Notes under the pieces: generated by a model | What the model was told of the DNA's origin: nothing | Seen by the model: the letters and a program-made list of their open reading frames with translations, nothing else | The model's database searches: none | Position numbers and translations under genes: made by a program | In this document: positions 1,613-4,703 of the stretch, piece after piece | Numbering within the stretch: position 1 is the first letter of the stretch | Layout of the letters: every line of letters starts with the position of its first letter | DNA from: Isoptericola luteus | GTDB taxonomy: Bacteria > Actinomycetota > Actinomycetes > Actinomycetales > Cellulomonadaceae | Direction: 5' to 3' | NCBI RefSeq assembly: GCF_020297055.1 | Contig: NZ_JAIXCQ010000001.1 | Location: 445,610 to 509,609 of the forward strand | Length of the DNA: 64,000 nucleotides

Positions 1613-2575
1613 CTACAGGTACCTGACGAGGTGCTGCAGGGCATCCTCGCCCACGAGGTCGTCGCCGAGCAGAGGCACCTCGTCGCGGGGCAGGTGGCCC
1701 AGGGTGTCGGTCAGGGTGCGCAGGTGCGCGGCCTCCTGCGTGTGGCGGGCGGCGAGCAGCCCGCCGGCGTCGGCGGGGGACCGCTTGTTCACGACCAGGC
1801 CGCCGACGGGGACGCCGAGCCCGTCGAGCTGGGCGCACAGCTCGATCGTCTCGAGCACGGGCAGCCGCTCGGCGGCGAGGACGACGACGAACGCGGTGAT
1901 GGTGGGGTCGGTGAGCACGTCGCGAAGGCGGGCGAAGCGGGTGCGGCGCTCGGTCAGGACGTGGCGGATCTCGCTGTCGCGGCGTGCCTCGGTCTCGCCC
2001 TGCCCGCCGAGCATCCGCGCCGCGGCCCCCAGGCGTTCGGAGCGTTCGCGGCGGCGCAGCAGGCCGTCGGTCCAGGCGCCCATGGTCTCCGGCAGGGTCA
2101 GCAGCCGCGCGGTGTGGCCGGAGGGTGCGGTGTCGAAGACGACGAGGTCGTGGTCCCGCAGGCCCGCCTCCACCGCGGTCGCCACCCGCTCCAGCACCGC
2201 GGCCTCGTGCGTGCCGGGGGCGTCGCGCGCGAGGTCGAGGTGGCGGTCGACCTCGCGCGACAGGTGCGGTGGGACGAGGCGGTGCAGGGTGCGGCGGACC
2301 GCCGCCAGGTGCGCGTCGGTGGTCCGCCCGGGGTCGATCTCCACGCCGTCGAGCACGCCTGTGCCGAACGGCCCGGCCAGCCGGACGACGTCGTCCCCGA
2401 CGGTGCGCTGCCACAGGTGCCCCAGGTTGTGCGCCGGGTCGGTGGAGACGACCAGCACCCGCCGCCCCGCGCGGGCCTGGGCGAGCGCCGTGGCGGAGGC
2501 GATCGACGTCTTGCCGACGCCGCCCTTGCCGCCGAGGAACAGCACGCGGCGCCGGGCGGCGAGGTCTAGCAGCAC
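1613..2575 (-). CDS. ArsA/Get3-like P-loop ATPase
   Basis: A 320-residue SIMIBI-class ATPase. It has the deviant Walker [13 protein letters not shown] near the N-terminus, a switch region [12 protein letters not shown] and a late nucleotide-contact motif [10 protein letters not shown]. That is the single-domain ArsA/Get3 architecture, a family that moves arsenite, metals or membrane-protein tails. The chosen GTG overlaps the end of the upstream Cys-Cys protein gene by 10 bp; an ATG 16 codons earlier is possible. Lying third in an operon with cstA and the small Cys-Cys protein, and with no arsenic genes nearby, it more likely serves that module than arsenic resistance. Confidence 0.85.
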
Positions 2576-2841
2576 GAGACGGAGTCCAGGGGCGAGCGCT
2601 CCATGCCCATGCGCGTGTGCCACTCGTGCACCCGCTCCGCGACCAGCGGCAGCAGCTCGACCGTGTAGTAGGACGCCGGGTTCGGCACGCCGAGCGCCTC
2701 GGCGAGCACGACGACGGTGAACAGGTCGTCCTCGTCGCGCCGGGCGCGGGAGAGCGTGCGCCGGTACGGCGCCTCGTAGAACTCCCGCAGCCCGGCGGAC
2801 AGGCTGCGCATCCCGTCGGCGACGGTGGTGCGCCTGGTCAT
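2566..2841 (-). CDS. Small protein ending in Cys-Cys (cory-CC-star-like)
   Basis: A 91-residue soluble protein whose last residues are SPLDSVSCC, two cysteines directly before the stop. The central part ([20 protein letters not shown], then [22 protein letters not shown]) matches my memory of the actinobacterial family named cory-CC-star, typically encoded beside an ArsA-like ATPase. It sits 14 bp after cstA and overlaps the ATPase gene, so the three are one operon. From memory, enterobacterial YbdD/YjiX proteins, encoded beside CstA/BtsT carriers, also end in Cys-Cys but are otherwise unlike it. The terminal thiols may bind a metal or be modified; no function is established. Confidence 0.8.
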
Positions 2842-2855
2842 GGGATCAGTTTGCG

Positions 2856-4574
2856 TCAGTCCGACGCCGCCGTGTCACCACGGCCGGCCCCGGCGAGGAC
2901 GGGGTCGTCCGTCTCCGGGTCGAACTGCCCCTTGCGGGCGGCCTGCATGGCGATCGTGGCCTCGAGGGCGACCCACAGGGACGCGACGAGGATGACGACG
3001 TCGAGCCCCAGCAGCAGCCAGTTCTGGTCGGTCCAGAACGTGCCGAGCTGTACGACCAGGGCGTAGACCGACACCACCATGACGAAGACGAGCGGGATGA
3101 GGATCAGCACCGGGTTGCGCTTCTTGCGCAGCAGCATGACGGCGATGATCGCGAGCGTGAGCGACGCCAGCAGCTGGTTCGTGGTGCCGAACAGCGGCCA
3201 GATGAGCAGGCCGCCCGAGCCGTCGGCGCCCGCGCTGAAGGTGAGGGCGACCCCGACGACCACGACGACCAGCGTCGCCGCGACGTTGGGCACCCGGACC
3301 CCGAGGATCTCCCCGGCCTCCTGTACGACGAACCGTTGCAGCCGCACGGCGGTGTCCATGGTGGTGGCGGCGAACAGCACCGCCATGGTCGCCAGGATGG
3401 TCGCGGACAGCCCCACCGGGAGGCCGAGGCCGGCGTTGACGATGGCGCCGCCGCCGTTGACGAACGCCGATACCCCGCCCTCGTTGAACGCGCTGTACAC
3501 GGCCTCCCAGTCGGCGAGCGTCTGGTAGCCGGCGGTGGCGGCGATGATGGCGCCGAGCGCGAGCAGGCCCTCGCCGACCGCACCGAAGTAGCCGACGAAC
3601 CGGCCGTCGGTCTCCTTGTCGAGCTGCTTGGCCGACGTGCCCGAGCTGACCATGCCGTGGAAGCCGGAGATGGCGCCGCAGGCGACGGTGACGAACAGCA
3701 GCGGCCAGATGCTCGGCGTGCCCTCCGGGACGGCCTGGTTGACCGCGGGCGCCACGATGGTGGGGCTCGCGAGCAGCACCGACAGGTACAGGATGCCCAG
3801 GCCGATGAAGAGCTGGACGCCGTTGATGTAGTCGCGCGGCTGCAGCAGCACCCACACGGGCAGCAGCGACGCGACGCCGGCGTAGAGGAAGAGCGTGACG
3901 ATCCAGAAGGTCGCGGGCGTCATGCCCAGGATCGACTCGGGCAGCACCACGGGGAACCGGTCGCCGACGAGGATCAGGGAGTACAGCGCCACGACGCCGA
4001 TGACGGTCGTGAGCAGCAGGTTCATCTTCCAGCGGTAGATCATCTGCCCGATGACGGCCGCCACGGCGATCGCGCCCCACACGGGGATGACCGACGTCGG
4101 CGTCGCGATGAGCAGGTTGGTGATGACGGTCGCGAAGGCGGCGACCACCATGAGCAGCAGCAGGAAGATCACGACGAGGAACAGGTTGCGACCCCGCGCG
4201 CCGATGTAGCGGCCGGACAGCATGCCCATCGACTGGCCCCGGTTGCGCACGGACGCCCACAGGGAGCCCATGTCGTGCATGCCGGCGAAGAAGACGGTGC
4301 CGATGGTGACCCACAGGAAGGCGGGCAGCCATCCCCAGATGACGGCGACGGCGGGGCCGACGATCGGCGCCGCGCCGGCGACCGAGGTGAAGTGGTGACC
4401 CCACAGGACGAACTTGTTGGTCGGGACGTAGTCCACGCCGTCCTGCAGCTCGTGCGCAGGGGTGCGGAACTCGGAGTTGAGGCGGTAGACGCGGCGGGCG
4501 AGGTACTTCGAGTACACGAAGTACCCGGCCAGCATCATCGCGATACCGATGATCGCGAGGACCAGGGAGTTCAC
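2856..4574 (-). CDS. cstA: CstA-family carbon starvation transporter
   Basis: A 572-residue polytopic membrane protein of the CstA/BtsT family (pyruvate or peptide uptake during carbon limitation). The N-terminal segment VNSLVLAIIGIAMMLAGYFV is followed by the family hallmark GHHFTSVAGAAPIVGP at about residue 63, and many membrane segments follow. It is shorter than the roughly 700-residue E. coli CstA. The GTG start has a CGGAG ribosome site; an upstream in-frame extension of 50 codons is Arg/Pro-rich and non-membrane, so I excluded it. It leads the operon with the Cys-Cys protein and the ArsA-like ATPase and diverges from hppA across a region with a CRP-like site. Confidence 0.93.
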   Translation of the reverse strand: MNSLVLAIIGIAMMLAGYFVYSKYLARRVYRLNSEFRTPAHELQDGVDYVPTNKFVLWGHHFTSVAGAAPIVGPAVAVIWGWLPAFLWVTIGTVFFAGMHDMGSLWASVRNRGQSMGMLSGRYIGARGRNLFLVVIFLLLLMVVAAFATVITNLLIATPTSVIPVWGAIAVAAVIGQMIYRWKMNLLLTTVIGVVALYSLILVGDRFPVVLPESILGMTPATFWIVTLFLYAGVASLLPVWVLLQPRDYINGVQLFIGLGILYLSVLLASPTIVAPAVNQAVPEGTPSIWPLLFVTVACGAISGFHGMVSSGTSAKQLDKETDGRFVGYFGAVGEGLLALGAIIAATAGYQTLADWEAVYSAFNEGGVSAFVNGGGAIVNAGLGLPVGLSATILATMAVLFAATTMDTAVRLQRFVVQEAGEILGVRVPNVAATLVVVVVGVALTFSAGADGSGGLLIWPLFGTTNQLLASLTLAIIAVMLLRKKRNPVLILIPLVFVMVVSVYALVVQLGTFWTDQNWLLLGLDVVILVASLWVALEATIAMQAARKGQFDPETDDPVLAGAGRGDTAASD

Positions 4575-4687: not shown

Positions 4688-4703
4688 CGTGACGCCCGTC
4701 ACA
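4688..4703. promoter_or_regulatory. CRP/GlxR-like palindrome in the cstA-hppA divergent region
   Basis: The sequence CGTGACGCCCGTCACA keeps 9 of 10 positions of the TGTGA-N6-TCACA consensus of CRP-family regulators. It lies between the divergent cstA and hppA genes, upstream of a possible -10 for hppA (TAGACT, 4710-4715). CRP control of cstA is known in enterobacteria; here it is inference from the motif. Confidence 0.5.

What the first reader, a model, noticed from the sequence alone, without database searches (positions are those of the whole stretch)
2566..4574. CstA transporter, Cys-Cys-ending small protein and ArsA-like ATPase as one operon
Seen: cstA, a 91-residue protein ending SVSCC and an ArsA/Get3-like ATPase are contiguous, with gaps of 14 bp and a 10-bp overlap. 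From memory, the enterobacterial BtsT/CstA carriers are encoded with YjiX/YbdD, small proteins also ending in Cys-Cys, and with the G3E NTPase YjiA. YjiA and ArsA are both SIMIBI-class NTPases. The same three-part logic (carrier, terminal-CC peptide, SIMIBI NTPase) with unrelated small proteins suggests an undescribed maturation, metal-loading or activation system for CstA-type carriers.
Basis: partly seen in the sequence, partly recalled or inferred. Interest (0 to 1): 0.72.

Follow-up and report, generated by a model that had tools for sequence, protein, structure and literature searches.

The report
CstA carrier operon with Cys-Cys partner
This is a member of an operon type in print since 2010, in which a nutrient carrier is made together with a tiny protein ending in two cysteines and an ATPase; comparing many genomes suggests that the cysteine pair is a recurring, possibly redox-active attachment of this carrier family.

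Summary
The operon is not undescribed: Castillo and Saier (2010) reported CstA-CstX-ArsA operons and co-evolution, and NCBIfam names the small protein 'cory-CC-star'. New here, as far as my searches go: (1) in 16 proteobacterial loci the small protein/ATPase pair does not adjoin cstA, yet all 16 genomes keep a CstA; (2) CstA clades sort by partner (short CstA with CC-star plus ATPase, long CstA with YbdD); (3) in one long-CstA lineage without YbdD the carrier itself ends in ..RCC (10 of 10). Because YbdD relatives ending Cys-Sec are published, I favour a redox or thiol role of the terminal pair at the carrier, with the ATPase handling the partner; that mechanism is inferred. Against: divergent CC-star relatives without terminal cysteine, variant YbdD ends (RCP, RCPC), many CstAs with no partner found, and a G3E GTPase beside YbdD in only 5 of 27 and 0 of 20 loci, so the SIMIBI parallel is weak.

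The parts
2856..4574 (-). cstA, short-type CstA carrier (572 aa, GTG start)
   Evidence: PF02554 E 7.6e-134; groups with CC-star-associated CstAs in the tree
2566..2841 (-). cory-CC-star (probably CstX) small protein, 91 aa
   Evidence: NF041419, 128.3 bits, cut-off 80; 22 invariant columns in an alignment of 50 sequences (window and 49 of the 80 relatives), including both final Cys
2569..2574 (-). codons of the terminal Cys90-Cys91, directly before the TAG stop (2566-2568)
   Evidence: translation; Cys-Cys end in the frames of all 80 relatives printed (L022 has a third Cys)
1613..2575 (-). single-domain ArsA/Get3-fold ATPase, 320 aa, GTG start overlapping the small protein by 10 bp
   Evidence: TIGR00345 203.3 bits, cut-off 135; nearest solved chains 5zme (ATPase ARSA1), 9nbl and 1f48 (ArsA), then GET3 chains
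4689..4702 (.). GTGA-N6-TCAC palindrome, CRP-like site, its far end 128 bp upstream of the cstA start
   Evidence: same motif within 300 bp upstream of cstA in 17 of 64 regions; single-base shuffles mean 0.13, random stretches of the same loci mean 0.59, maximum 3; that this is a CRP-type consensus is recalled

Best explanation
It is a CstA-CstX-ArsA operon (identity about 0.95). Most likely mechanism: the short-type CstA carrier takes up a carbon source under carbon limitation and needs the small helical cytosolic protein, whose C-terminal Cys-Cys is a redox-active or thiol-reactive tail that engages the cytoplasmic side of the carrier. The ArsA/Get3-type ATPase uses ATP to place, recycle or release that partner. 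Shown: operon, co-occurrence also when not adjacent, partner-by-clade sorting, Cys-Cys end in all 80 close relatives, the cis-RCC tail in a YbdD-less CstA lineage. From the literature: YbdD is needed for CstA pyruvate uptake in E. coli, some YbdD relatives end Cys-Sec, E. coli CstA is driven by the proton gradient. Inferred: redox role, contact with the carrier, the ATPase acting on the partner, the substrate, and the transfer of the YbdD evidence to the unrelated CC-star.
For: CstA in 18 of 18 Actinomycetota genomes with a CC-star match (14 of them over the cut-off), against 49 of 198 overall (hypergeometric 7.5e-13, not corrected for kinship). 16 of 16 genomes whose CC-star/ATPase pair does not adjoin CstA hold a CstA elsewhere. 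One genome (G191) has two CstAs, each beside its own partner type. Tree of 122 CstAs: one group of 52 holds all 50 rows labelled CC-star plus 2 without; 6 partner states need 9 changes, shuffled mean 67. Cis tail: of 150 Pseudomonadota genomes 34 have a full-length long CstA; 25 have YbdD and none of these CstAs ends CC; 9 lack YbdD and 9 of 9 end ..RCC; a tenth. Background: 2 of 1464 unrelated frames of 300 aa or more end CC, and both are frames that hold a YbdD. Literature: YbdD required (PMC5847655); terminal Sec in DUF466/YbdD with a redox suggestion (PMC4607533); RefSeq calls YbdD-type neighbours of CstA 'CstA-like transporter-associated (seleno)protein'.
Against: Divergent CC-star relatives beside CstA and ArsA-like ATPases in G054, G199 and G057 carry no terminal Cys. 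7 of 47 distinct YbdD frames end RCP or RCPC, not CC. The cis tail is one evolutionary event (one clade), and those carriers also gained other clade-specific Cys, so they may have changed function. Two CstAs inside the CC-star clade have no CC-star found (L106, L208), 15 of 49 actinobacterial CstA genomes have neither partner, and 42 of 44 Pseudomonadota genomes with non-long CstA have no CC-star match. Long CstAs of G116 and G170 have neither YbdD match nor CC end. No Sec version of CC-star was seen in the 80 loci. The E. coli cstA and btsT loci hold no ArsA-like ATPase.
Confidence: 0.45

Rival explanations
1. ATP-energised transport: the ArsA-like ATPase drives CstA as a primary pump, as ArsA drives ArsB, and the small protein couples the two (the proposal of Castillo and Saier 2010).
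For: Conserved operon and co-evolution of the three proteins (PMC2963123); P-loop and switch motifs conserved in the aligned ATPases.
Against: E. coli CstA is driven by the proton gradient (PMC7730263); no ArsA-like match lay beside the 20 actinobacterial and 27 Pseudomonadota long-CstA or YbdD stretches; the three ArsA activity cysteines are not conserved in single-domain homologues (PMC2963123) and no Cys column is conserved here.
Confidence: 0.2
2. Metal or cofactor delivery: the terminal Cys-Cys binds a metal and the NTPase loads it into CstA, a metallochaperone-like system.
For: Vicinal Cys can bind soft metals (general knowledge); YjiA, a G3E GTPase by recall, lies beside yjiX in E. coli; one CC-star operon has a YjiA-like gene as convergent neighbour (L116).
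Against: No CxxC and no conserved Cys in the ATPase; G3E association is a minority (5 of 27, 0 of 20); Sec at the equivalent YbdD position was read by its finders as a sign of redox activity (PMC4607533); relatives without Cys exist.
Confidence: 0.15
3. Get3-like biogenesis: the ATPase is a chaperone that helps insert or assemble CstA, the small protein is its adaptor, and the Cys pair is only a docking element.
For: Nearest solved sequences are ArsA and Get3 proteins; the small protein is predicted mostly helical (mean pLDDT 72).
Against: CstA homologues of YbdD type were not found with this ATPase; no CxxC as in Get3 (motif recalled); no model of a complex could be made.
Confidence: 0.2

Closest known systems
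CstA-CstX-ArsA operons (Castillo and Saier 2010, PMC2963123)
   Same: CstA, a ~90-aa protein and a ~330-aa single-domain ArsA homologue in one operon; ArsA table includes Brevibacterium linens and gammaproteobacteria
   Different: That paper does not mention YbdD (0 occurrences); the passages and sections I saw do not mention a terminal Cys-Cys. That CstX equals CC-star is my inference from size, order and taxa: their CstX sequences were not seen
NCBIfam NF041419 cory-CC-star protein
   Same: the window protein scores 128.3 bits, cut-off 80; three RefSeq plasmid records opened of six matched name it in one run with carbon starvation protein A and ArsA family ATPase
   Different: nothing seen; it is a member
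E. coli CstA-YbdD and BtsT-YjiX-YjiA
   Same: CstA-family carrier followed by a small protein ending Cys-Cys
   Different: long-type carrier clade, small protein without detectable kinship, YjiA or nothing instead of an ArsA-like ATPase
KCU-star/DUF466 selenoproteins (NF033934; PMC4607533)
   Same: terminal Cys-Sec in place of Cys-Cys in the YbdD family, which neighbours CstA
   Different: YbdD family and CC-star are not kin by profile comparison; no Sec seen in CC-star. PMC4607533 does not mention CstA (0 occurrences)

Membership tests
NF041419 cory-CC-star | score over the curated cut-off (80 bits) | tested here: met
   128.3 bits, profile 2-80 of 80
NF041419 cory-CC-star | terminal Cys-Cys | tested here: met
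   ends SVSCC
CstA family PF02554 | score over gathering cut-off | tested here: met
   447.9 bits, cut-off 27
CstA family PF02554 | pyruvate or peptide transport | not testable with these tools
   needs an uptake assay; the NF011590 pyruvate symporter model is far under its cut-off (205.5 of 1188 bits)
TRC40/GET3/ArsA family TIGR00345 | score over cut-off and P-loop GGKGGVGKT | tested here: met
   203.3 bits, cut-off 135; motif
Arsenical pump ATPase ArsA (TIGR04291) | two-domain protein over cut-off 650 with conserved activity Cys | tested here: not met
   124.1 bits, one domain (profile 5-286 of 565); one Cys, not conserved
Get3 tail-anchor chaperone | CxxC zinc motif of the fungal/animal type (motif recalled) | tested here: not met
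   0 of 90 aligned sequences with CxxC; 5 further hits were left out of the alignment because my pattern missed their SGKGG P-loop
YbdD/Sel_put PF04328 | profile match | tested here: not met
   no Pfam match at E 1; profile-profile probability 0.7%
CstX of Castillo and Saier 2010 | membership in their CstX tree | not tested

The most novel reading that the evidence does not exclude
CstA-family carriers of two large clades depend on a C-terminal vicinal Cys-Cys (or Cys-Sec) tail that evolution has supplied by three unrelated routes: a YbdD peptide, a CC-star/CstX peptide handled by an ArsA-like ATPase, or the carrier's own C-terminus. The tail would be a redox switch or catalytic thiol pair at the cytoplasmic gate, which would make these carriers thiol-gated.
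Probability: 0.35. Interest if true: 0.75.

Novelty: new member of a known kind. Interest (0 to 1): 0.42.

Why it matters
CstA/BtsT carriers are widespread, and why they travel with tiny Cys-ending proteins is open; the ATPase beside them belongs to a family known from arsenic resistance. The cis-RCC lineage makes the role of the terminal pair testable with a single gene, without partner or ATPase, and the E. coli cstA-ybdD pair gives a ready assay.

Tried and rejected
Homology of CC-star and YbdD: no support, hhalign aligned only the final SCC/RCC with probability 0.7% (the YbdD side was 20 sequences, 18 of them picked by me from the 47 frames). Fold of CC-star: AlphaFold2 model of modest confidence (mean pLDDT 72.3, pTM 0.51); Foldseek on PDB gave one hit, at E 9.1, so no fold kin is claimed. 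Solved structures by sequence: nothing significant for CC-star, CstA or YbdD (best E 0.88, 0.12, 0.75). G3E GTPase as a general partner: rejected as general. Arsenic efflux: rejected, no conserved Cys, single domain. CstA-YbdD fusion in Novosphingobium: two separate features that overlap by 4 bp, not fused. Halo-CC-star, HcsL and HcsS (names recalled): the 20 papers listed of 642 have 0 occurrences of halo-CC-star and are on other subjects. Small ORF behind CstA in L106 and the extra ORF in L224: no family found.

Full report
What is there. On the minus strand of the window lie cstA (4574-2856), a 91-aa protein ending SVSCC (2841-2566) and an ArsA/Get3-like ATPase (2575-1613), with a 14-bp gap and a 10-bp overlap. 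Families: PF02554; NF041419 cory-CC-star (128.3 bits, cut-off 80); TIGR00345 (203.3 bits, cut-off 135). The same 10-bp overlap is annotated in a Paracoccus and a Pseudochrobactrum plasmid. The closest small-protein relative is from Isoptericola (93%).

Conservation. Of 214 relatives of the small protein found in genome contigs the best 80 were kept. The ATPase follows within 200 nt in 79 of 80 and CstA precedes within 400 nt in 64 of 80. The other 16 come from assemblies named as gammaproteobacterial, Pseudomonadales, Proteobacteria or Aquisalimonas. By reading of the frames, 15 of these 16 (not L080) lie behind RatA- and/or RatB-like frames, most with an SNF-type symporter before them; a TonB-receptor-like gene follows in L042, L044, L049, L050, L053 and L057-L060 (in pieces in L035) but not in L038, L040 or L065. 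Only L057 was checked against Pfam (SNF, polyketide_cyc, TonB receptor). All 16 genomes hold a CstA elsewhere, as do the 4 linked genomes searched with them (20 of 20; one of the four, G018, holds two), and the short stretches around those 16 CstAs show no CC-star. The assemblies are in contigs, so true distances are unknown; the 16 are mostly kin, and CstA is common anyway (80 of 150 Pseudomonadota), so this is support, not proof, of a working partnership.

Genome surveys. In 198 Actinomycetota genomes: CstA in 49, CC-star match in 18 (14 over the cut-off), YbdD in 17; all 18 and all 17 are among the 49, one genome has both, and 15 of the 49 have neither. In 150 Pseudomonadota genomes: CstA in 80, YbdD in 26 (25 with CstA; G342 is the exception), CC-star in 2. 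Of the 80, 34 have a full-length long-type CstA and two more only pieces of one (G331, G314); of the other 44, 42 have no CC-star. In 17 such stretches inspected (of 20 fetched; the other three were one CC-star locus and two cis-tail loci) no CC-star, YbdD, YjiA or ArsA-like neighbour was matched.

Carrier tree. A quick maximum-likelihood tree of 122 CstAs splits long (YbdD) from short types. Within short types one group of 52 (SH-aLRT 99) holds all 50 rows labelled CC-star and two without it (L106, L208); the three rows with Cys-less CC-star relatives fall outside it. The six partner states need 9 changes against a shuffled mean of 67. The tree is quick, with long-branch warnings for the deepest rows, and two labels rest on separate contigs.

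The cis tail. Of the 34 Pseudomonadota genomes with a full-length long-type CstA, 25 have YbdD and none of those CstAs ends CC; 9 have no YbdD match, and all 9 carriers end ..RCC. A tenth was found among 48 genomes of the same order (G375). The nine form one clade (support 100) nested in YbdD-type carriers, so this is one event, not nine. Background: 2 of 1464 unrelated frames of 300 aa or more end CC, and those two hold YbdD (stop-to-stop frames, not all genes). The clade also has Cys at six core positions where YbdD-type carriers have 0 to 9% Cys, so a change of function cannot be excluded. G331, whose CstA is split over contigs, has a short CC-ending frame behind it that reads like a divergent YbdD. 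Exceptions: actinobacterial G116 and G170 have long CstA, no YbdD match and no CC end.

Is the pair essential? All 80 CC-star relatives end Cys-Cys. Of 47 distinct YbdD frames (one gene counted twice, L165/L173), 40 end CC, five RCP and two RCPC. In G054, G199 and G057 two CC-star relatives without terminal Cys lie in tandem beside CstA with ArsA-like ATPases (two in L104 and L105; L103 ends within the first); tandem ArsA and CstX copies were also reported in 2010. So the Cys pair is usual, not universal.

ATPase. 90 aligned sequences keep GKGG-GK, the S-T-D-P-A-H and DTAP-GHT motifs at 94% or more in each position printed; CxxC 0 of 90; no conserved Cys. Five more hits were left out because my pattern missed their SGKGG P-loop. 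By these tests it is neither an arsenic ArsA nor a zinc-motif Get3.

Regulation. GTGA-N6-TCAC occurs within 300 bp upstream of cstA in 17 of 64 regions including the window (4689-4702); single-base shuffles mean 0.13; random stretches mean 0.59, maximum 3. Many of the 17 are close relatives. A carbon-status regulator is plausible (inference).

Literature. PMC2963123 (abstract, passages, sections 3.2 and 3.12 seen): 26 CstA-ArsA associations, 24 with CstX; proposal that ArsA energises CstA and CstX links them. PMC5847655 (passages): YbdD needed for CstA pyruvate uptake, uptake 13% and 20% of wild type in the cstA and ybdD deletions. PMC7730263 (passages): E. coli CstA is driven by the proton gradient; YbdD is not mentioned there. 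PMC4607533 (passages): DUF466 family with C-terminal Sec after Cys, redox suggested, CstA not mentioned. PMC9312934 and PMC13188914 (table passages): KCU-star/DUF466, motif CU in the latter. PMC13356812 (passages): adjacent cstA and ybdD-type genes of Nitrosomonas rise together late in phage infection. RefSeq already names some YbdD-type proteins 'CstA-like transporter-associated (seleno)protein', so the selenoprotein-CstA link is not mine. Searches: no paper names cory-CC-star; only the 2010 paper holds CstX with CstA; searches list no paper whose title or abstract start concerns a cis Cys-Cys tail of CstA, but I opened only seven papers, and most subscription papers are not held.

Judgement. 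The finding is correct and sits in a published kind of operon. What is new is the comparative case that the terminal Cys pair belongs functionally to the carrier. The mechanism stays a proposal.

Noticed in passing
L196, L197, L198, L200, L201, L227-L230, L252: Long-type CstA without YbdD ending ..RCC on the carrier itself; in nine of them (L252 was not in that alignment) Cys is also fixed at core positions equal to window CstA 245, 265, 302, 344, 413 and 472.
   Followed up: partly
L103, L104, L105: Tandem CC-star relatives without terminal Cys, with ArsA-like ATPases (two where the contig is long enough), beside CstA.
   Followed up: partly
L035, L038-L040, L042, L044, L048-L050, L053, L057-L060, L065: CC-star/ATPase pair behind RatA/RatB-like frames, mostly with an SNF-type symporter before them and in about nine with a TonB-receptor-like gene after, away from CstA (read by eye; Pfam on L057 only).
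   Followed up: partly
L071 4234-9112: Natronospirillum: cstA, CC-star, ATPase, then a second cstA downstream.
   Followed up: no
L231 7293-7532 (G342): YbdD ending RCC in a genome where no CstA was found; weak match (36.9 bits, cut-off 85) to the KCU-star selenoprotein model.
   Followed up: partly
L116 3176-4183: A YjiA-like GTPase gene is the convergent neighbour of a CC-star operon's ATPase.
   Followed up: no
L208 602-1771: ArsP_1 permease near a short CstA that has no CC-star match in its genome.
   Followed up: no
window 4689-4702: CRP-like palindrome between cstA and a divergent gene that reads like a membrane pyrophosphatase (from 4834; by reading only, no family search succeeded on it).
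   Followed up: partly
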